Assembly: GCA_902790475.1 (NCBI GenBank)
Contig: CADASG010000042.1
Location: forward strand, 1 to 51,273
Origin: an uncultured Ruminococcus sp.
GTDB taxonomy: Bacteria; Bacillota; Clostridia; Oscillospirales; Acutalibacteraceae
Direction of reading: 5' to 3'
Length of the DNA: 51,273 bases
A program made the translations under genes and the position numbers. The stretch's first letter is position 1; each line of letters begins with the position of its first letter. Shown here in pieces: positions 34,261 to 43,230 of this stretch. The notes below the pieces were generated by a model. It saw only the letters and a program-made list of their open reading frames with translations, did not search any database and was not told where the DNA came from.

Positions 34261-35889
34261 ATGATTCATTGTCCGTCCTGCGGCTCGGGACTGCGCTTTG
34301 ACATCGCGTCGCAGAAAACCTGCTGCGACCACTGCCGAAGCTTTTTTGAGCCGGAAGCGCTGCCCGACAGCGTATATGACGACGCGGAGACCGAAAAGGT
34401 CTTTGACAGCTTCCGCGTGATCTGCCCCGACTGCGGCGCGGAGCTGGTGACCACCGACCCCAACGACGCCGTGGGCTTTTGCCCTTACTGCGGCGGCGCG
34501 TCGGTGATCTATGATAAACTTCGCAAAGAGTGGGCGCCGAACGGGATCATCCCGTTTTCCGTCACAAAGGAGCAGTGCAGGGAGCTGTATTCAAAAGAGG
34601 TAAAGAAACAGTGGTTCGTGTCGCGCAAATACCGCGATCCGAAGCTTATCGAGAGCTTTCGCGGAATATATATGCCGTATAGCAGCTACCAAAACAGGGT
34701 GCAGGGACTCATTCAGCTTCGCGCGCACGGCAGGGAATACGACGAGGGCAACTACCGCTACTCCACCGATCATTTTATTGTAACAGCGAACGCCGACTAC
34801 ACGGTGAAGGATTCCTCGATGCACGAGGCTTCCGTCGCCTTTGACGACCACCTCAGCGACAGGATCGCTCCGTATGACGAAAAGGCTCTGCGCCGATTTA
34901 CACCCGGTTATCTCTGCGGCTTTTACGCCGAAACGGGCGATTTGGACGGAGACGAATACGCTTATGCTTCGGGCGAGACCGTAAGAAGCAGCATGTATAA
35001 CGCCCTAAACGGCGACAAGGTGTTTCACGGAGTGATGAAGGAGCAGAACCTGACGCTTGACAAGGCAAGCGACGACCATATCCCGTTCAAGCCGGAGTCC
35101 GCCGAACGCAGGCTTTACCCGGTTTGGTTTATGAGCTACCGTCGCGGAAACAAAATCACCTACGCAACCGTCAACGGACAGACCGGCAAGGTCGCCGCCG
35201 ATCTGCCGCTCAGTCCTCTGAGGATCCTTTTGACGGCGCTTGGACTGTTCGCAGTGCTGTTCGGTCTGATGCTGCTGCTTATAAACGTTTTGCCCACCGT
35301 TCCTGCCACCACCGTGAACGGCGTGAGCGCTATGCTCTCGCTGACGGGCATGTATATCATTCAGCACTCGTTTATCCGCACCGTCGGAAAAACGCTGCGC
35401 GCACCCGAAATGGACTGCAAGATCCCACTCGCCTTTATCGTATCCGCAATACTGATGACTGTCGGCGTGGTTTTGGCGACGACCGACGGCACCTATGAAC
35501 AGGACCGCTACGCAATGGGTATGCTTGCAATGATGGTGGGACTCATCGTCAACATCGTGCAGCATGTCAAGCAGAAAAAATATACGAATGTGATCAAGCA
35601 TTTGACTCTCACCACGCCGTCCATGCAGCAAAACGGCATACTTGCGGAGGCAAAAAGCTTCCGCGTGATCAACGGTATCTACCGCGTGCTGATGTATATC
35701 GCCGTGTTTATCTGTATCCTCGTTATTTCCGCGGATACTGCGGCAAAGTCTTTGTATTTCGCTTTGGCGGCTGTGAACGCCGCGGCTATGTTCGGACTCG
35801 CGCTGCTGCACATTTTCTTCCAGAAAAAGGTCGCTATGCGCCGTCCGCCTCAGTTCAACAAGAAGGGAGCGGCGTATGATGAAAAATAA
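34261..35889 (+). CDS. Zinc-ribbon membrane protein, first gene of the TPM/radical-SAM operon
   Basis: A 542-residue protein, function unknown. The N-terminus has two TFIIB-type zinc ribbons (Cys4/Cys7 with Cys22/Cys25, and Cys55/Cys58 with Cys74/Cys77). A central soluble region of about 230 residues contains PFSVTKEQCRELYSKEVKKQW and GIYMPYSSY. The C-terminal third has about five hydrophobic helices (roughly 320-520). The start ATG at 34261 follows AAAGGAGCGATACT; an open frame upstream is repeat-derived. It overlaps the next gene by 14 bp. Proteins of this kind are often found beside TPM-domain proteins in clostridia. Inference: a membrane partner or chaperone for the TPM protein. Confidence 0.8.
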   Translation: MIHCPSCGSGLRFDIASQKTCCDHCRSFFEPEALPDSVYDDAETEKVFDSFRVICPDCGAELVTTDPNDAVGFCPYCGGASVIYDKLRKEWAPNGIIPFSVTKEQCRELYSKEVKKQWFVSRKYRDPKLIESFRGIYMPYSSYQNRVQGLIQLRAHGREYDEGNYRYSTDHFIVTANADYTVKDSSMHEASVAFDDHLSDRIAPYDEKALRRFTPGYLCGFYAETGDLDGDEYAYASGETVRSSMYNALNGDKVFHGVMKEQNLTLDKASDDHIPFKPESAERRLYPVWFMSYRRGNKITYATVNGQTGKVAADLPLSPLRILLTALGLFAVLFGLMLLLINVLPTVPATTVNGVSAMLSLTGMYIIQHSFIRTVGKTLRAPEMDCKIPLAFIVSAILMTVGVVLATTDGTYEQDRYAMGMLAMMVGLIVNIVQHVKQKKYTNVIKHLTLTTPSMQQNGILAEAKSFRVINGIYRVLMYIAVFICILVISADTAAKSLYFALAAVNAAAMFGLALLHIFFQKKVAMRRPPQFNKKGAAYDEK

Positions 35890-36739
35890 GCTGAGAAAAC
35901 CGCTCTGCATTTGTCTGATATTTATTGTACTTACCGCCGCGTTCACCTTTTCGGCAAACGCCGCCGATGATGCTACGCGATATCAAAACAGCGAAACGGG
36001 TTACCGTGCAGTGATCATCGACGAGCTCGATCTGCTGACGGACTCGGAGGAGTCGCAGCTCGCCTTGGACATGGCGCCGATAACCGCCTACGGCAATATC
36101 GCCTTTTGGACAACCATGGAGCAGACTTCAAATGAGATAGATTCGGCGAGACTGAAACGCAAAGAGCTGTTCGGATTTTCAAGCGCGGGTATTTTCGCCG
36201 TCAACATGAGCGTTAAAAAGCTGACGATCCAAAGCTACGGCGATATCAACAGTGTGATAACCGATTCCTATGCGCGTTCCATTACCGACAATGTAAAAAA
36301 CTACGCTTCCACAGGGGATTATTACACCTGCGCGCAAATGGCTTTTCAGCAGATCTACACCAAGCTTGACGGCGGCACGATCAGCGAGCCGCTGAAGGTC
36401 ACGGGCTGCGTTGTGTTCGCGGTGATGATCGCTCTGATTTTGGCGCTGGGGATAGCCTTTTCACCCCGCTTCAATCCTCTGCTAAAGGATGCCGAAATAC
36501 AGTATCCTTCGCGCGCGAGGGCAAAGGGAAGCGTGAGCGAGGTCACGAATATCGCCTTCGTAGGAAAGACCACGACATACCGTCCGCCGCGACCCGTATA
36601 CATTCCGAGCGGAAGCTCCGGCGGATCAAGCTGCTCGAGCTGTTCGAGCGGATCAAGTTGCTCAAGCTGTTCGAGCGGTTCAAGCTGTTCGAGCTGCGGA
36701 GGCGGCGGCTGCGGCAGCGGCGGAAGCTCCTCGTTTTAA
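35876..36739 (+). CDS. Secreted TPM-domain protein with tandem Cys-Ser tail, candidate radical-SAM substrate
   Basis: A 287-residue membrane protein. The signal peptide runs to about residue 30 (FTFSANAA), the TPM domain covers roughly 45-165 (starts VIIDELDLLTDSEESQLA; includes AFWTTMEQTSNEID and GIFAVNM), a membrane segment lies at about 175-195, followed by a basic linker. The tail from 245 to 287 holds the nonapeptide SSCSSCSSG twice plus SSCSSC and GGGGCGSGG, with cysteines at 253, 256, 262, 265, 271, 274 and 279. TPM proteins usually end in plain Gly/Ser tails; the regular CxxC spacing is unusual. GGGAG precedes the ATG; a start three bases later is equally possible. It is followed after three bases by a radical SAM/SPASM gene. 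Confidence 0.85.
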   Translation: MMKNKLRKPLCICLIFIVLTAAFTFSANAADDATRYQNSETGYRAVIIDELDLLTDSEESQLALDMAPITAYGNIAFWTTMEQTSNEIDSARLKRKELFGFSSAGIFAVNMSVKKLTIQSYGDINSVITDSYARSITDNVKNYASTGDYYTCAQMAFQQIYTKLDGGTISEPLKVTGCVVFAVMIALILALGIAFSPRFNPLLKDAEIQYPSRARAKGSVSEVTNIAFVGKTTTYRPPRPVYIPSGSSGGSSCSSCSSGSSCSSCSSGSSCSSCGGGGCGSGGSSSF

Positions 36740-36742
36740 GCT

Positions 36743-37747
36743 ATGGAAGAGTATCTTTACGAGGGCTGCTTCACGCTGCAGTGGCACATCACCCACCGCT
36801 GCAACCTGCGCTGCGCCCACTGCTATCAGGATGACTACAGCGCCTTTGAGTCACGCGATACCATGACGGATGTACTCGATCAGTTTCAGGCGCTGCTGCG
36901 CGAGTACCGGCTCAGAGGACATATCAACGTCACGGGAGGCGAACCGCTGACCCATCCCGATTTGTTTTGGCTGCTGCGCGAGATCAACGACCGTCACATC
37001 TCCTCGGGCGTGCTCACGAACGGCACCCTCGTCGGACTGCGCGAGGCAAGGCTTTTTCGCGCCTGCGGCGTGGATTACGTGCAGATAAGCCTTGACGGTT
37101 TGGAAAAAACTCACGACGCGATCAGGGGAGAGGGAAGCTACGCGCGCGCACTCAGGGGGATAAACGCGCTCAAAGCGCAGGGGCTGTTCACCAGCGTCTC
37201 GTTTACCGCACAGCGCGGCAACCTGCGCGACCTGCCCGGGTTGGCGCGCGTCTGTGAAAAGGCAGGCGTTGACAAGCTGTGGTTCGACCGGGTGGTAATC
37301 CCTGCCGACGAAGATCCAAAGGGACTGTCGCTTGACAAAAAGGACTTTCAAAAGCTGATAAAAACCGCCGCGCGGCTAAACCGCAGCGGAAAGGTCTTTT
37401 GCGGAAGGGCTTTGCAGTTTATCCCTTGCCGCCGCAAGAATATCTACCGCTGTTCGGCAGGCGATTCGCTGCTGGTGCTGCTGGCTGACGGCTCCGTTAT
37501 GCCGTGCCGCAGACTGCCGTTAATCGCCGGCAATGCGCATGACAGCACTCTGCTCAGCATCTACCGCGATTCTCCCGTTATGATCTCGCTTCGTGAAACG
37601 GGAGTGCCGCAGGAATGCAGGGGCTGCCGCTACTCGGAGGACTGCCGCGGCGGCGCGAAGTGCGCGGCATACGCGCGTTTCGGCAGATACGATATCCCCG
37701 ACCCCGACTGTCCGCTGTTAAGGCAAAGTCATCGAGGAAATCTCTGA
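36743..37747 (+). CDS. Radical SAM/SPASM enzyme, possible maturase of the TPM tail
   Basis: A 334-residue radical S-adenosylmethionine enzyme. The [4Fe-4S]-SAM motif CNLRCAHC is at residues 20-27, NVTGGEP at about 62-68, and SLDG near 116-119. The C-terminal SPASM domain has Cys at 220, 229, 237, 255, 292, 295, 301, 307 and 323, with IYRCSAGDSLLVLLADGSVMPCR and CRGCRYSEDCRGG, enough for two auxiliary clusters. SPASM enzymes modify peptides or proteins, making thioether or C-C links. The start codon is three bases after the TPM stop, so translation is coupled. The direct link to a Cys-repeat protein makes that tail the natural substrate candidate; this is inference. No peptidase or precursor-peptide gene is seen. 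Confidence 0.9.
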   Translation: MEEYLYEGCFTLQWHITHRCNLRCAHCYQDDYSAFESRDTMTDVLDQFQALLREYRLRGHINVTGGEPLTHPDLFWLLREINDRHISSGVLTNGTLVGLREARLFRACGVDYVQISLDGLEKTHDAIRGEGSYARALRGINALKAQGLFTSVSFTAQRGNLRDLPGLARVCEKAGVDKLWFDRVVIPADEDPKGLSLDKKDFQKLIKTAARLNRSGKVFCGRALQFIPCRRKNIYRCSAGDSLLVLLADGSVMPCRRLPLIAGNAHDSTLLSIYRDSPVMISLRETGVPQECRGCRYSEDCRGGAKCAAYARFGRYDIPDPDCPLLRQSHRGNL

Positions 37748-37756
37748 CAATTTCTT

Positions 37757-37794
37757 AAGGCAGTACCGCGCGTTGATTTACGCGGTACTGCCTT
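37757..37794. terminator. Bidirectional palindrome/terminator (family B'-like)
   Basis: AAGGCAGTACCGCG pairs with CGCGGTACTGCCTT around a ten-base loop, between the convergent radical-SAM and lipoprotein genes. Sequence is related to the short family B' palindromes, with matching changes in both arms. Confidence 0.8.
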
Positions 37795-37805
37795 TACAGT
37801 TTGCT

Positions 37806-38183
37806 TTATTCATTCACCTTTGAAAAGAGGAAGGAATTTGATTCATTGTTGTAGTTGAGCGTAAGGGTCATCAGTCCTCCGCTGTAGTCAAGCTTTAGCG
37901 CCTGACCGCCGTAGGTGACGTCCACCGAGGTCTCGTTGAACACATACTCGCCCTCGTTTCGTATTCCGCCAAGCACCAAAATGCATTTGCCGCTCCTCTC
38001 AAACGTCAGGCTGAACTCCTTGTCTTCCTTTTTTATTTCGCTGTACGCGACCGAGCTGCCGCCGATGGTCACGGTGGTCGGCACCCACTTGCCGACGATC
38101 TCCTGATTATTGTCGTCGGAACAGCCTGCCAAGCCGCAAAGCATTGCCGCGCAAAGCAGAAGTCCGATCAGTTTTTTTACCAT
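37806..38183 (-). CDS. Small predicted lipoprotein, lipocalin-like
   Basis: A 125-residue exported lipoprotein with signal MVKKLIGLLLCAAMLCGLAGC and lipobox LAGC (Cys21). The mature part begins DDNNQEIVGKWV and runs as short beta strands with SLTFERSGKCIL and GEYVFNETSVDVTYGG, a pattern of small lipocalin-like proteins common in gut Firmicutes. Function unknown. TTGGAGATAATCAT precedes the ATG. It is single, converging on the radical-SAM operon, with the pckA promoter region on its other side. Confidence 0.8.
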   Translation of the reverse strand: MVKKLIGLLLCAAMLCGLAGCSDDNNQEIVGKWVPTTVTIGGSSVAYSEIKKEDKEFSLTFERSGKCILVLGGIRNEGEYVFNETSVDVTYGGQALKLDYSGGLMTLTLNYNNESNSFLFSKVNE

Positions 38184-40220: not shown

Positions 40221-40333
40221 GTCATTTAGAGCGCCGGCCGAAATTATCTTTCCCATAATGATTCCCTGTCGTGCTGATGTGCGGCAGGGAAATAGTATTA
40301 GGTGGAAAACGCATCATAAAAGGAGGTTTTAGA

Positions 40334-41314
40334 ATGAAACATACGAAATTGTTATCCGCCGTTATGGCAGCGATCGTGACTGTCTCCGCTATGACAGTAT
40401 GTCTGCCGTCTGTGTCAGCATATGAAAACTATCAGGATCCGACGGGACACTGCACTGAAACAGACACTTATCCCGTCGAGGATTATACATACGATCCATA
40501 CGATCTATACGGTTCTACCAATCACTGCACCGATTGGGAGGATTATTATTTGTACATGGAATCGAATTACTGCGAAGACAACAATTATTATTCGGGTTCC
40601 TTGTACGGTACCCATGAATTAACGTTTACTGCGCCCGAGGATTTGGAGATCGTCAGTTTCAAATTCACGCTTTATCATGAAGATCCGTGCGTTTCGTTAA
40701 TCAGCTACGCTCCGTTTACCGACATGGACTGCGAAGAGCAGAACGATACGCGCATGCTGACGGGCAGCTTTGCTTCAACTAAAGCCGTGACGGTCAAAAA
40801 GGGTCAGCCGCTGCTGACTGCGGATGTTAAGGTAAGTGTAGCTGATGCTTACTTCTTTAACGACAGCGGTTTTCGGACTACCGTGTATTTTGAAGTTGAA
40901 GAATTACAGGTCGTTACCGCCGAAGGCTACAAGGTGATAATCGGCGATGAGGACACCACCGCTCCTGCCGGGGATCCCTATGGTCCCACCGATCACTGCA
41001 CAACCGACCCCGTGCCCACTTCGGTTCCCGGTGAGTCTTTCGATCCGCTGATCGCCACCACAACGCCCGGCATTCCTCCGGTTTCCGTTGTTATCGGCGA
41101 CGTTGATCACAACGGCTCCGTGAACATTGACGACGCCACAACGCTTCAAAGACATATCGCGGCTTTCAAAAACGCAGACGGCACGCCGATCGTTGATGAA
41201 ACCGATCCTGCGCAGATGGCGGTTGCCGACGTCAACAGCGACGGCGTCATCAGCGTAAAAGACGTAACCATGATCCAGCGTTATCTTGCCGGTATCATTG
41301 AAAAGCTCGGATAA
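40334..41314 (+). CDS. Secreted dockerin-containing protein
   Basis: A 326-residue exported protein. The signal peptide ends near SVSA (about residue 30). A Tyr/Asp/His-rich segment follows (GSTNHCTDWEDYYLY), then a beta-rich domain from HELTFTAPEDLEIVSFKFTL to about residue 215 whose strands recall cohesin or X-module folds, a Thr/Pro linker, and a C-terminal type I dockerin. The dockerin has two calcium-loop repeats: GDVDHNGSVNIDDATTLQRH and ADVNSDGVISVKDVTMIQRY. AAAGGAGGTTTTAGA precedes the ATG at 40334. Dockerins bind cohesins on scaffoldins, so this protein should join an extracellular or cell-bound complex; its own function is unknown. Confidence 0.85.
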   Translation: MKHTKLLSAVMAAIVTVSAMTVCLPSVSAYENYQDPTGHCTETDTYPVEDYTYDPYDLYGSTNHCTDWEDYYLYMESNYCEDNNYYSGSLYGTHELTFTAPEDLEIVSFKFTLYHEDPCVSLISYAPFTDMDCEEQNDTRMLTGSFASTKAVTVKKGQPLLTADVKVSVADAYFFNDSGFRTTVYFEVEELQVVTAEGYKVIIGDEDTTAPAGDPYGPTDHCTTDPVPTSVPGESFDPLIATTTPGIPPVSVVIGDVDHNGSVNIDDATTLQRHIAAFKNADGTPIVDETDPAQMAVADVNSDGVISVKDVTMIQRYLAGIIEKLG

Positions 41315-41544: not shown

Positions 41545-43230
41545 TTAGTCGAACGTACAGGGAGTATATTCGATCTCACCCAAATTGTTGACGGTATATT
41601 CGGAATCGGTCAAATAATAAGCCGATTGTGTGAAATCGGTTATCATCGAGGTTTGACCGTCTTTGCCGTCGCAGATAACCAGTCCGGTCACATTTTTGGG
41701 AACCTTGATCCGGTAAATCTCCTCGCCGTAGTCGTTTAACATATAGACGGTCTGCTTTGCTCCCGGCCAATCCTGACTGACAACGCCCTTTTCATTATAC
41801 ATGATAACATACACTTCGTTCCAGTTCAGGGAATTCGCGAAAAGGAATTCCGACTTAGGGGTATCCTTAAAGGGCACAAGCGCCGGAACCTGCTGACCGA
41901 ATTCGTCTGTGACGGTTTTTTCGGGATCCAAATAGTATCCGCCGCCCTCGGGATAAAAATCGGTGATAGTGATCGTCTGGTTACGATTTTTTCCGTCATT
42001 CAAAATAACGCCCTTTGTATCATAATACGGAACAGTGACCTTATATATGTCGTTACCGCCGGCAGTGCTTGTGATATCGGTAAGCTTTGTACCGGGCCAT
42101 GCCCCCAGAAGATCGGCGCCGCTTTCGTCCCATGCGTAAGCGTAAACCTCGTCCCACTTCATGGTGTTTTCAAACAGGAATTCGGGATCCTCAGGCGGAG
42201 GCGCCCAGTGGGTAGCTACGTCGTTCAGGATTTCTCTCGGTGTTTCAGAATAAGGATCTACCATGATCGCGTACTCGGTTGACCACAGGGGATCAAACTT
42301 GATTTCAGGGGTATGCTTGCTGCCGTCTGCGCTGACAGCGCTCAAAGAAAATGCGTCCTCGGGGATCTTTACGCTGTATGTATCCCAGCCGAAAACTGTT
42401 TTGTCGGTGTAGGATATGCTGACTCCCGGCAAAACGCGGTTGCCCTTGTCGCGCGCGATTATGTTGAAATTGTCCCAGCCGAGAGAATCATAGATGCTAT
42501 ATTCAATGACCTTGAGCAGCTTGCCGTTTTTCACGGGTCTGCCGCAGAAGCTGCCGCTGTGGTTTAATCTTGCGATAAAATACTGAATGAGAGTGGCGTC
42601 ATTGATTTTTACCTCTTTGCTTTGGTCGGCGTCGGCAGCGTCGGGATTATACGTGTCGGGCACGGACATTTGCGCAAGGTAACGCTGGATCAGGGTAACG
42701 TCGTTGATGTCGATCGTATCGTCGCCGTTCGTGTCGCCGATCATGTAACGTTTAAAAATCGCAGGCTCGGGTGTGGGCTCGGGCTCGTCTACGGGCTCTG
42801 TCCAGTGCACCGGATCAGTCAGAGGGATGACCTCATAAACCTTTGAACCGTAAATGCTGAGACCGGTTTTTTCCGCGTCCAAATACCAGCCGCTGACGTT
42901 GAAATCAGTGATATCGTTGGTTTGGTCGCCGTCGTTGTTGCTGAGTACAATGCCGGACGCGCCTGCGGGGATATTTATGCTGTAAACATCATAGCCGTAG
43001 TCGTCCTTGCCGGAGACGTTCAGTTTTTCACCCGGCCAATCTCCCATTATGGAATTGCCGCTTTCGTCCCAAGCGTACTGATAAACATTTTCCCAACCCA
43101 GTGTGTTGTAGAAATAGAAAGCGCGGGCAGGAGCAGGAGCTTCCTCAGCGCTTGCAGGGAGTGCCGATATGCAGCTGAACAGCAGCATGATCACCAGCAC
43201 CGTTGAAATGATTTTTTGTGTTTTTTTCAT
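41545..43230 (-). CDS. Starch-binding protein: four CBM26-like modules with an internal dockerin
   Basis: A 561-residue secreted protein. Signal peptide to about residue 28. Module 1 (37-135) has the aromatic pattern of starch-binding CBM26: FYFYNTLGWENVYQYAWDES and GDWPGEKL. A type I dockerin lies inside the chain at 163-222 (GDTNGDDTIDINDVTLIQRY, then ADADQSKEVKINDATLIQYF). Three more CBM26-like modules follow (242-335, 351-452, 461-556), with the second the most diverged; modules 3 and 4 keep MKWDEVYAYAWDE and SLNWNEVYVIMYNE. No catalytic domain is present, so it likely ties an amylosome-type complex to starch. An internal rather than terminal dockerin is uncommon. AAGGAGGTTTACA precedes the ATG; a palindromic repeat lies in the leader. 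Confidence 0.88.
   Translation of the reverse strand: MKKTQKIISTVLVIMLLFSCISALPASAEEAPAPARAFYFYNTLGWENVYQYAWDESGNSIMGDWPGEKLNVSGKDDYGYDVYSINIPAGASGIVLSNNDGDQTNDITDFNVSGWYLDAEKTGLSIYGSKVYEVIPLTDPVHWTEPVDEPEPTPEPAIFKRYMIGDTNGDDTIDINDVTLIQRYLAQMSVPDTYNPDAADADQSKEVKINDATLIQYFIARLNHSGSFCGRPVKNGKLLKVIEYSIYDSLGWDNFNIIARDKGNRVLPGVSISYTDKTVFGWDTYSVKIPEDAFSLSAVSADGSKHTPEIKFDPLWSTEYAIMVDPYSETPREILNDVATHWAPPPEDPEFLFENTMKWDEVYAYAWDESGADLLGAWPGTKLTDITSTAGGNDIYKVTVPYYDTKGVILNDGKNRNQTITITDFYPEGGGYYLDPEKTVTDEFGQQVPALVPFKDTPKSEFLFANSLNWNEVYVIMYNEKGVVSQDWPGAKQTVYMLNDYGEEIYRIKVPKNVTGLVICDGKDGQTSMITDFTQSAYYLTDSEYTVNNLGEIEYTPCTFD

What the first reader, a model, noticed from the sequence alone, without database searches (positions are those of the whole stretch)
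34261..37747. Zinc-ribbon / TPM with Cys-repeat tail / radical SAM-SPASM operon: candidate protein-tail modification system
Three genes in overlapping or touching order: a zinc-ribbon membrane protein, a secreted TPM-domain protein whose tail carries the nonamer SSCSSCSSG in tandem (seven Cys, CxxC spaced by five residues), and a full SPASM enzyme starting three bases after the TPM stop. SPASM enzymes are known to modify Cys-containing peptides (for example sactipeptide and ranthipeptide thioethers). I infer that this enzyme cross-links or modifies the TPM tail before export, which would be a RiPP-like modification at the end of a large membrane protein and not on a small leader peptide. I know of no characterised pair of this kind.
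Basis: partly seen in the sequence, partly recalled or inferred. Interest (0 to 1): 0.82.

Follow-up and report, generated by a model that had tools for sequence, protein, structure and literature searches.

The report
Radical-SAM enzyme paired with cysteine-tailed membrane proteins
A bacterial enzyme that does radical chemistry travels with membrane proteins ending in a short glycine-serine tail dotted with cysteines, and in its own genus the tail has those cysteines only where the genome also has the enzyme, so it probably alters them chemically, which would be a little-studied kind of protein finishing.

Summary
The three-gene operon is real and as described. The inference that the SPASM enzyme acts on the Cys tail survives the test its author proposed. 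In the 162 held genomes of the genus plus three from sister genera, the TPM tail has Cys in 37 of 37 copies where the genome has this SPASM gene and in 0 of 10 where it lacks it; residue -9 from the C-terminus is Cys versus Gly. In 8 of 33 genomes the enzyme lies on another contig, yet the tail keeps Cys. This is only one or two independent contrasts on the TPM tree. Stronger is recurrence: in a supported SPASM clade, 21 of 26 rows have a Gly/Ser/Cys tail gene in the locus (four phyla), on TPM, DUF2207, TIGR04222 or zinc-ribbon proteins, against 3 of 41 rows outside. TIGR04222 Cys tails are published candidate substrates of MNIO enzymes, which this genus lacks (0 of 162). SbtM, which turns Cys into thiooxazole, is the best-scoring named model for the window enzyme, far below cut-off. 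The tail is predicted cytosolic, not exported. Chemistry and function are unproven. Verdict: a new enzyme-substrate pairing; thiooxazole or thioether formation on tail Cys is likeliest.

The parts
34261..35889 (+). Gene 1: zinc-ribbon, multi-transmembrane protein (542 aa), the usual upstream partner of TPM genes in this lineage
   Evidence: homologues upstream of TPM with or without SPASM; paralogue in own genome
35876..36739 (+). Gene 2: TPM-domain membrane protein (287 aa) with Cys tail; probable substrate
35876..35962 (+). Signal peptide of gene 2 (reading of the sequence, no predictor run)
   Evidence: sequence; hydrophobic stretch ending ANA
36017..36358 (+). TPM domain (PF04536)
36404..36460 (+). 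Single transmembrane helix of gene 2, followed by Lys/Arg (C-terminus inside)
36608..36736 (+). Gly/Ser/Cys tail, 43 residues, 7 Cys, tandem SSCSSCSSG
36710..36712 (+). Codon of the Cys at -9 from the C-terminus; Cys in 37 of 37 SPASM+ copies, Gly in 10 of 10 SPASM- copies
36743..37747 (+). Gene 3: radical SAM/SPASM enzyme (334 aa), probable tail maturase
36800..36823 (+). CxxxCxxC motif of the radical SAM cluster
   Evidence: sequence; invariant in A2
37451..37711 (+). SPASM Cys set C237, C255, C292, C295, C301, C307, C323 (CX17C, CX2CX5CX5C, C)
37757..37794 (.). 14-bp perfect hairpin between the operon and the convergent gene; likely shared terminator
   Evidence: -26.9 kcal/mol, z -5.9

Best explanation
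The operon encodes a protein-tail modification system. The TPM protein is inserted in the membrane with its TPM domain outside and its Gly/Ser/Cys tail in the cytosol. The SPASM enzyme, presumably cytosolic and without room for a separate leader-binding domain, binds the low-complexity C-terminal tail and oxidatively modifies its cysteines, including the one fixed nine residues from the end. Relatives of the enzyme do the same to similar tails on DUF2207, TIGR04222 and other membrane proteins: the enzyme and the tail are the constant pair, and the protein body is exchangeable. Shown by comparison: the linkage, the co-occurrence, the Cys/Gly switch at -9, and the tail shared by different bodies. 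Inferred: that the tail is the substrate (about 0.8). Guessed: the product; 5-thiooxazole (about 0.4) is slightly ahead of a thioether to a Gly or Ser alpha carbon (about 0.35). The modified tail may bind a metal such as Cu(I).
For: Whole held genus, 162 genomes: this SPASM gene (E 1e-60 or better) in 35, this TPM type (E 1e-35 or better) in 43, both in 33, SPASM alone in 2, TPM alone in 10, neither in 117; Fisher p 3e-23 without correction for kinship. Cys in the last 25 residues: 37 of 37 copies in SPASM+ genomes (34 in the genus, 3 in two sister genera), 0 of 10 in SPASM- genomes; residue -9 Cys versus Gly without exception. SPASM follows the TPM gene closely (coordinate differences 5-60; the window pair scores 7) in 25 of 33 genomes and is on another contig in 8 of 33, where all 8 tails still have Cys. 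Specificity inside genomes: 16 other TPM paralogues were found in 12 of the 13 SPASM+ genomes searched; 14 were read to the stop and none has Cys in the last 45 residues, though 3 of the 14 have no Gly/Ser tail at all. Wider: a clade of 26 SPASM rows (support 100/98), 21 with a Gly/Ser/Cys tail gene in the locus (20 by the automatic filter's standard, L114 by eye), versus 3 of 41 rows outside. Bodies: TPM, DUF2207 (6 loci over the cut-off), TIGR04222 (5 proteins in 4 loci over the cut-off), zinc-ribbon membrane protein. Control: of the 30 best DUF2207 loci from 196 Clostridia-class genomes, 21 show a Gly/Ser-rich end, 0 of 21 with Cys; the CxxxCxxC(Y/F) motif was seen in no ORF beside them except a 68-aa reading in L237. 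One genome (G096) fuses the zinc-ribbon start of gene 1 in frame to the SPASM enzyme.
Against: No biochemistry. On the TPM tree the SPASM state changes only twice: one independent contrast on supported branches, two on all branches; both agree, but a sign test cannot reach significance. SPASM-less genomes lack this enzyme, not radical SAM enzymes in general: weaker SPASM relatives are in nearly all genomes sampled (98 of 101 with some match). 2 of 35 SPASM+ genomes show no such TPM (G024, 81% complete; G085, 88%); the one TPM found in G085 has no Cys tail and that of G024 is cut before its end. 5 of 26 clade rows show no tail gene nearby (L101, L112, L115, L117, L129). Some bodies may be related to each other: TIGR04222 partners give weak DUF2207_C hits and the zinc-ribbon partner a weak TIGR04222 hit, so the sure count of unrelated bodies is two (TPM, and the DUF2207/TIGR04222 group). 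Filter and by-eye labels were not applied alike inside and outside the clade. In 9 of 47 TPM proteins a second hydrophobic stretch before the tail makes its side uncertain. No NCBIfam maturase model shown is reached at its cut-off, so similarity does not settle the chemistry.
Confidence: 0.8

Rival explanations
1. Sactionine-type system: the SPASM enzyme links each tail Cys sulfur to the alpha carbon of a nearby Gly or Ser, giving a chain of small thioether rings (-2 Da each).
For: Many SPASM enzymes make thioethers; sactipeptide and ranthipeptide maturases are among the models hit (StsB, PapB, AlbA). The solved structures that score best with the clade profile are SkfB, PqqE, 5wgg ('Radical SAM domain protein', which I recall as the ranthipeptide maturase CteB) and an anaerobic sulfatase-maturating enzyme. 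Repeats of the SSCSSC kind look like ring-forming arrays.
Against: These models score far below their cut-offs (78 of 625, 77 of 340 and 74 of 850 bits) and below SbtM and the ACGX system. Tails with a single Cys among Gly (3 of 37) allow only one ring.
Confidence: 0.35
2. SbtM/MNIO-like system: each Cys is oxidised by four electrons to 5-thiooxazole, making the tail a Cu(I)-binding array; the enzyme would be the radical SAM counterpart of MNIO enzymes on the same kind of tail.
For: SbtM is the best NCBIfam hit of P0003 (158 bits); over P0003 and nine relatives it ranks first in 2 of 10 and in the first four in 9 of 10. SbtM removes four hydrogens from Cys to give thiooxazole (passages of the review PMC11002830; also passages of PMC12538549). 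TIGR04222 Cys tails, proposed MNIO substrates (PMC12452194, section read), pair with this SPASM clade in four genomes. MNIO is absent from the genus (0 of 162). Thiooxazole peptides bind copper (passages of PMC12668002).
Against: SbtM scores are below the cut-off of 350 in all ten, and SbtM's first ~190 residues are missing. The ACGX model ranks first or second in 9 of 10 and TIGR04053 ranks first in two, and heme-synthesis models score nearly as high, so the similarity is not specific. No copper gene stands beside the window operon; one cation efflux gene beside one relative (L119) is a single case.
Confidence: 0.4
3. The Cys tail is an unmodified redox or metal-binding appendage and the SPASM enzyme has another substrate, for example the TPM body or gene 1.
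For: The enzyme's substrate was not assayed; Cys-rich tails can bind metals unaided; SPASM sits in an operon with two other proteins, and one genome fuses it to the gene 1 zinc ribbon.
Against: Bodies change (TPM against the DUF2207/TIGR04222 group) while tail and enzyme stay; TPM and gene 1 persist without SPASM and then the tail has no Cys.
Confidence: 0.11
4. Shared ancestry only: the tail type and the SPASM gene are inherited together in one lineage with no functional tie.
For: Only one supported contrast, two in all, on the TPM tree.
Against: Tail Cys kept in 8 of 8 genomes where the genes are unlinked; the same kind of tail beside the same SPASM clade on different bodies in four phyla; TPM paralogues in the same genomes lack Cys.
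Confidence: 0.07

Closest known systems
MNIO enzymes with TIGR04222 membrane proteins (proposal in PMC12452194)
   Same: Multi-pass membrane proteins whose Ser/Gly-rich C-terminus carries Cys, next to a Cys-modifying enzyme; some SPASM-clade partners are TIGR04222 proteins over the cut-off
   Different: Unrelated enzyme (radical SAM/SPASM, not MNIO); MNIO absent from this genus; TPM and DUF2207 bodies; the TPM tail is predicted cytosolic, whereas the paper predicts periplasmic tails
SbtM (thio(seleno)oxazole maturase, TIGR04082)
   Same: Best NCBIfam hit of P0003 over the radical SAM and SPASM parts; acts on Cys
   Different: Below the family cut-off; lacks the N-terminal ~190 residues; SbtM acts on a precursor peptide (review passage), not on a membrane protein
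ACGX-system radical SAM/SPASM protein (TIGR04340)
   Same: First or second model for 9 of the 10 proteins scanned; by its name it goes with Cys-Gly repeats
   Different: Below cut-off (140 of 400 for P0003); function not characterised as far as I recall
Sactipeptide and ranthipeptide maturases (AlbA, StsB, PapB, SkfB)
   Same: SPASM enzymes acting on Cys; SkfB is the best-scoring solved structure for the clade profile
   Different: Act on leader-bearing peptides (recalled); far below cut-offs; P0003 is only 334 aa, too short for an added leader-binding domain
TPM (PF04536) and DUF2207 proteins with ordinary Gly/Ser tails
   Same: Same bodies and same kind of tail
   Different: No Cys in the tail when this SPASM enzyme is absent: 0 of 10 TPM, 0 of 21 DUF2207 without a radical SAM neighbour

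Membership tests
Radical SAM/SPASM enzymes | CxxxCxxC cluster motif and SPASM domain over curated cut-offs | tested here: met
   PF04055 81.6 bits (29.5), PF13186 29.8 bits (21.5); over 36 aligned rows all motif Cys invariant except C295, which is at 90% or more
Any named NCBIfam SPASM maturase | Score over the model's curated cut-off | tested here: not met
   25 best of 80 models shown for P0003, all under cut-off; 9 relatives likewise among models shown at E 1e-30 or better
Sactipeptide/ranthipeptide system | Thioether cross-links from Cys | not testable with these tools
   needs mass spectrometry
RiPP | Small precursor with leader, core at the C-terminus, core later released | tested here: inconclusive
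   tail is at the end of a 287-aa membrane protein; C-terminal position fits, small leader peptide does not; release not testable
SbtM-type thiooxazole system | Member of TIGR04082 and Cys to thiooxazole | tested here: not met
   158 of 350 bits, N-terminal part missing; product untested
MNIO/TIGR04222 system | MNIO enzyme (PF05114) in the genome | tested here: not met
   0 of 162 genus genomes; control search rings in 2 of 14 known genomes
MNIO/TIGR04222 system | TIGR04222 body with Cys-rich tail | tested here: inconclusive
   window TPM protein: no NCBIfam hit at E 0.01; five SPASM-clade partners in four genomes over the cut-off
TPM domain proteins | PF04536 over cut-off | tested here: met
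   33.3 bits (22.1)

The most novel reading that the evidence does not exclude
This SPASM clade is the radical SAM counterpart of MNIO enzymes: it installs 5-thiooxazoles (or an equivalent Cys heterocycle) on the Cys tails of membrane proteins of several different folds, turning an ordinary Gly/Ser tail into a membrane-tethered, cytosol-facing Cu(I)-binding array in anaerobes and other prokaryotes. Two unrelated enzyme families would have converged on one substrate type and one chemistry.
Probability: 0.3. Interest if true: 0.88.

Novelty: new variant of a known kind. Interest (0 to 1): 0.74.

Why it matters
If right, a radical SAM enzyme modifies the tail of large membrane proteins and not a small peptide, and the same tail-enzyme module has been attached to at least two unrelated protein bodies (four by family name) in four phyla. 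It would give TPM, DUF2207 and TIGR04222 proteins, widespread and little understood, a testable biochemical handle. It would also connect two separate fields, SPASM maturases and copper-binding thiooxazole peptides. A size limit on precursor peptides, which RiPP mining commonly uses (recalled), would hide such pairs.

Tried and rejected
The gene 1 alignment made for it (A3) was not used further. A DUF2207 protein used as a direct query in 245 Clostridia-class genomes found nothing (an uninformative blank, since no genome was known to match), so the Pfam family was used instead. Paper searches for TPM with radical SAM and DUF2207 with radical SAM found 0 papers; 'selenooxazole' found 0; the wider searches listed nothing on this pairing as far as titles and starts of abstracts show, and one search showed 15 of 2,979, 25 of 83. 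TIGR04222 is in 2 papers. Passages of PMC9062424, a radical SAM mapping paper, hold neither 'TPM' nor 'Cys-rich'. The only text library is open-licence PMC, so absence there is weak; supplements were not seen. The SbtM primary paper is not held.

Rejected: that the zinc-ribbon gene is needed for the modification (it accompanies TPM genes without SPASM), although the fusion in G096 keeps a link possible. Rejected: chance composition of the tail. In one search, ORFs of 100 aa or more with a Cys tail were found in 18 of 24 clade loci, 4 of 55 distant SPASM loci (one of them, L160, an out-of-frame reading, seen) and 0 of 30 DUF2207 control loci. Not counted: L087 (not read) and L073 (cut at the contig end) among the TPM paralogues; G430, cut before the tail; 9 of the 30 DUF2207 loci whose end was cut, frame-shifted or not a Gly/Ser tail, among them L238, whose reading has 3 Cys in the last 45 residues but only 10 of 45 Gly, Ser or Cys. 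The enzyme match in G525 covers only residues 1-197 and was counted as present. The SPASM tree used 65 of the 80 loci plus L092 and P0003; the 15 left out are L099 (one stop in frame; its locus has a Cys tail) and 14 distant ones. Alignment A1 used a hand-picked 19 of the SPASM sequences at hand.


Full report
WHAT IS THERE. The window holds a compact three-gene operon at 34261-37747: a zinc-ribbon membrane protein (542 aa), a TPM-domain protein (287 aa) and a radical SAM/SPASM enzyme (334 aa), the first two overlapping and the third starting after three bases. A perfect 14-bp hairpin follows. The TPM protein ends in a 43-residue Gly/Ser/Cys tail with seven Cys and the unit SSCSSCSSG. The genome also has a second TPM gene of the same type with a Cys tail on contig C44, with no ORF bearing the radical SAM motif in the 9.9 kb read around it, and a third, more distant TPM gene on C31 with a Ser/Gly tail without Cys.

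I searched all 162 held genomes of the genus. This SPASM enzyme (E 1e-60 or better) is in 35, this TPM type (E 1e-35 or better) in 43, both in 33, SPASM alone in 2, TPM alone in 10, neither in 117 (Fisher p 3e-23, not corrected for kinship). Weaker radical SAM relatives are in nearly every genome (98 of 101 sampled), so 'SPASM-less' means lacking this enzyme. Adding the second own copy and three genomes of two sister genera that have both genes, 47 tails could be read to the stop; one further TPM gene (G430) is cut off before its tail. Cys in the last 25 residues: 37 of 37 with the enzyme in the genome, 0 of 10 without. The C-terminus is otherwise the same: C-G-(G/S)-G-G-(S/G)-S-S-F in the first group (with one Ala and one His exception at -3 and -2), G-G-G-G-G-S-S-S-F in the second; the switch is at -9. 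The first group has 1 to 9 Cys in the last 45 residues; in the three with a single Cys it is the one at -9.

LINKAGE IS NOT NEEDED. In 25 of 33 genomes the SPASM gene follows the TPM gene closely on the same strand (differences of 5-60, where the window pair scores 7); in 8 of 33 it is on another contig, and all 8 tails keep Cys. TPM paralogues of other types do not have it: 16 were found in 12 of the 13 SPASM+ genomes searched, 14 were read to the stop and 0 have Cys in the last 45 residues, though 3 of the 14 lack a Gly/Ser tail altogether.

HOW MUCH THAT IS WORTH. On a tree of the TPM bodies (tails left out) the SPASM state changes twice, once at a well-supported clade of nine and once at G075 on weaker branches. 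Independent pairs: one on supported branches, two on all; both go the same way, but that proves nothing statistically. The two SPASM-only genomes, 81% and 88% complete, may have lost the partner to incompleteness, but the TPM gene that was found in G085 lacks Cys and the one in G024 is cut.

RECURRENCE ON OTHER BODIES. In the family sample (398 genomes) the enzyme was found in 5 genomes and the TPM type in 5; in G409 a 40%-identical enzyme (L092) directly follows a different membrane protein with a Cys tail. A scan of genome contigs with a profile of the enzyme gave the best 80 loci. Of the 24 that are listed first and score best (L098-L121), 19 carry an ORF with a Cys-rich Gly/Ser tail by an automatic filter, and L114 has a two-Cys tail read by eye. 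On the tree (67 rows) the window enzyme lies in a clade of 26 (support 100/98) from records labelled Bacillota, Pseudomonadota, Armatimonadota, Thermodesulfobacteriota and Methanobacteriota; 21 of 26 have such a tail gene in the locus, against 3 of 41 outside. The Methanobacteriota member (L129) has no tail gene nearby and may be a stray contig, so the pairing is seen in four phyla. The bodies are TPM, DUF2207 (PF09972 over cut-off in L102, L104, L105, L106, L107, L121), TIGR04222 over cut-off (L100, L103, L110 and two genes in L111), and a zinc-ribbon membrane protein (L098; L092 has a similar partner). Weak cross-hits between TIGR04222, DUF2207_C and the zinc-ribbon protein mean that these may be distant kin; TPM is the clearly separate one. 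The tail gene is upstream, downstream (L102, L104, L107) or convergent (L103, L111). In ten genomes searched for TIGR04222, all five genes over the cut-off lie in the SPASM loci. As a control, 30 DUF2207 loci, the best of a sample of 196 Clostridia-class genomes, show the radical SAM motif in no neighbouring ORF but a 68-aa reading; 21 show a Gly/Ser-rich end and 0 of those 21 has Cys.

MECHANISM. The TPM protein has a signal peptide, an outside domain, one helix and then Lys/Arg residues, so the tail faces the cytosol where the enzyme is expected (38 of 47 proteins with one helix, 9 with a second weaker hydrophobic stretch whose topology is uncertain). The enzyme has the radical SAM motif and seven SPASM Cys, with CX5C where the usual SPASM motif (recalled) has CX3C, and is too short for an added leader-binding domain. 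All 179 Cys counted in the last 40 residues of the 37 tails have Gly or Ser on both sides. What is made of them is open. P0003 scores best with SbtM and then the ACGX system; over ten proteins ACGX is first or second in 9, SbtM first in 2, TIGR04053 first in 2, all under the cut-offs; sacti- and ranthipeptide maturases score lower for P0003. SbtM takes four hydrogens from Cys and leaves a thiooxazole (PMC11002830, passages). MNIO enzymes make 5-thiooxazoles that bind copper (PMC12668002, passages) and are proposed to modify Cys tails of TIGR04222 membrane proteins (PMC12452194, TIGR04222 section and passages). MNIO is absent from this genus (0 of 162). MNIO enzymes use oxygen (recalled), so a radical SAM enzyme doing the same work in anaerobes is a natural reading, but it is a reading.

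NOVELTY. The main text of PMC12452194 has 'radical SAM' only in its reference list. Searches for TPM or DUF2207 together with radical SAM returned no paper, and a broader one showed only general radical SAM work in the 25 of 83 papers listed (titles and abstract starts). The library is limited to open-licence papers. I call it a new variant of a known kind: peptide-type maturation by a SPASM enzyme, moved to the tails of membrane proteins.

VERDICT. The pairing of enzyme and tail is well supported by comparison. The chemistry, the function and any metal binding remain to be tested.

Noticed in passing
L021:1501-2670 (G096:C18): The zinc-ribbon N-terminus of a gene 1 homologue is fused in frame to the SPASM enzyme, although the genome keeps gene 1 and TPM on another contig.
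   Followed up: partly
L128:1925-3496, L137:2389-3903, L141:2-478 and 584-2359: Cys-Gly tails on membrane proteins beside SPASM enzymes outside the main clade (records labelled Zixibacteria, Thorarchaeota, Sigynarchaeota); possibly separate origins of the same pairing.
   Followed up: partly
L119:2005-3558: In an Electrothrix record the SPASM gene and its Cys-tailed membrane protein are followed by a cation efflux gene (PF01545), a possible hint at metal handling.
   Followed up: partly
L045, L053, L054, L055, L058, L062: Six TPM genes of the genus have long open frames (454-478 aa); five of them give a second TPM-like match in the same frame, a tandem.
   Followed up: no
window 37757-37794: Perfect 14-bp hairpin with a 10-base loop between the operon and a convergent small gene (37806-38183).
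   Followed up: yes
window 40271-41314: Dockerin-bearing protein (PF00404) downstream of a PEP carboxykinase; a second dockerin-like stretch is read by eye in 41545-43230, suggesting a cellulosome-type organism.
   Followed up: partly
L129:4001-4987: A record labelled Methanophagales carries a SPASM gene sister to a Thiotrichaceae one, with no tail gene nearby; gene transfer or a misplaced contig.
   Followed up: no
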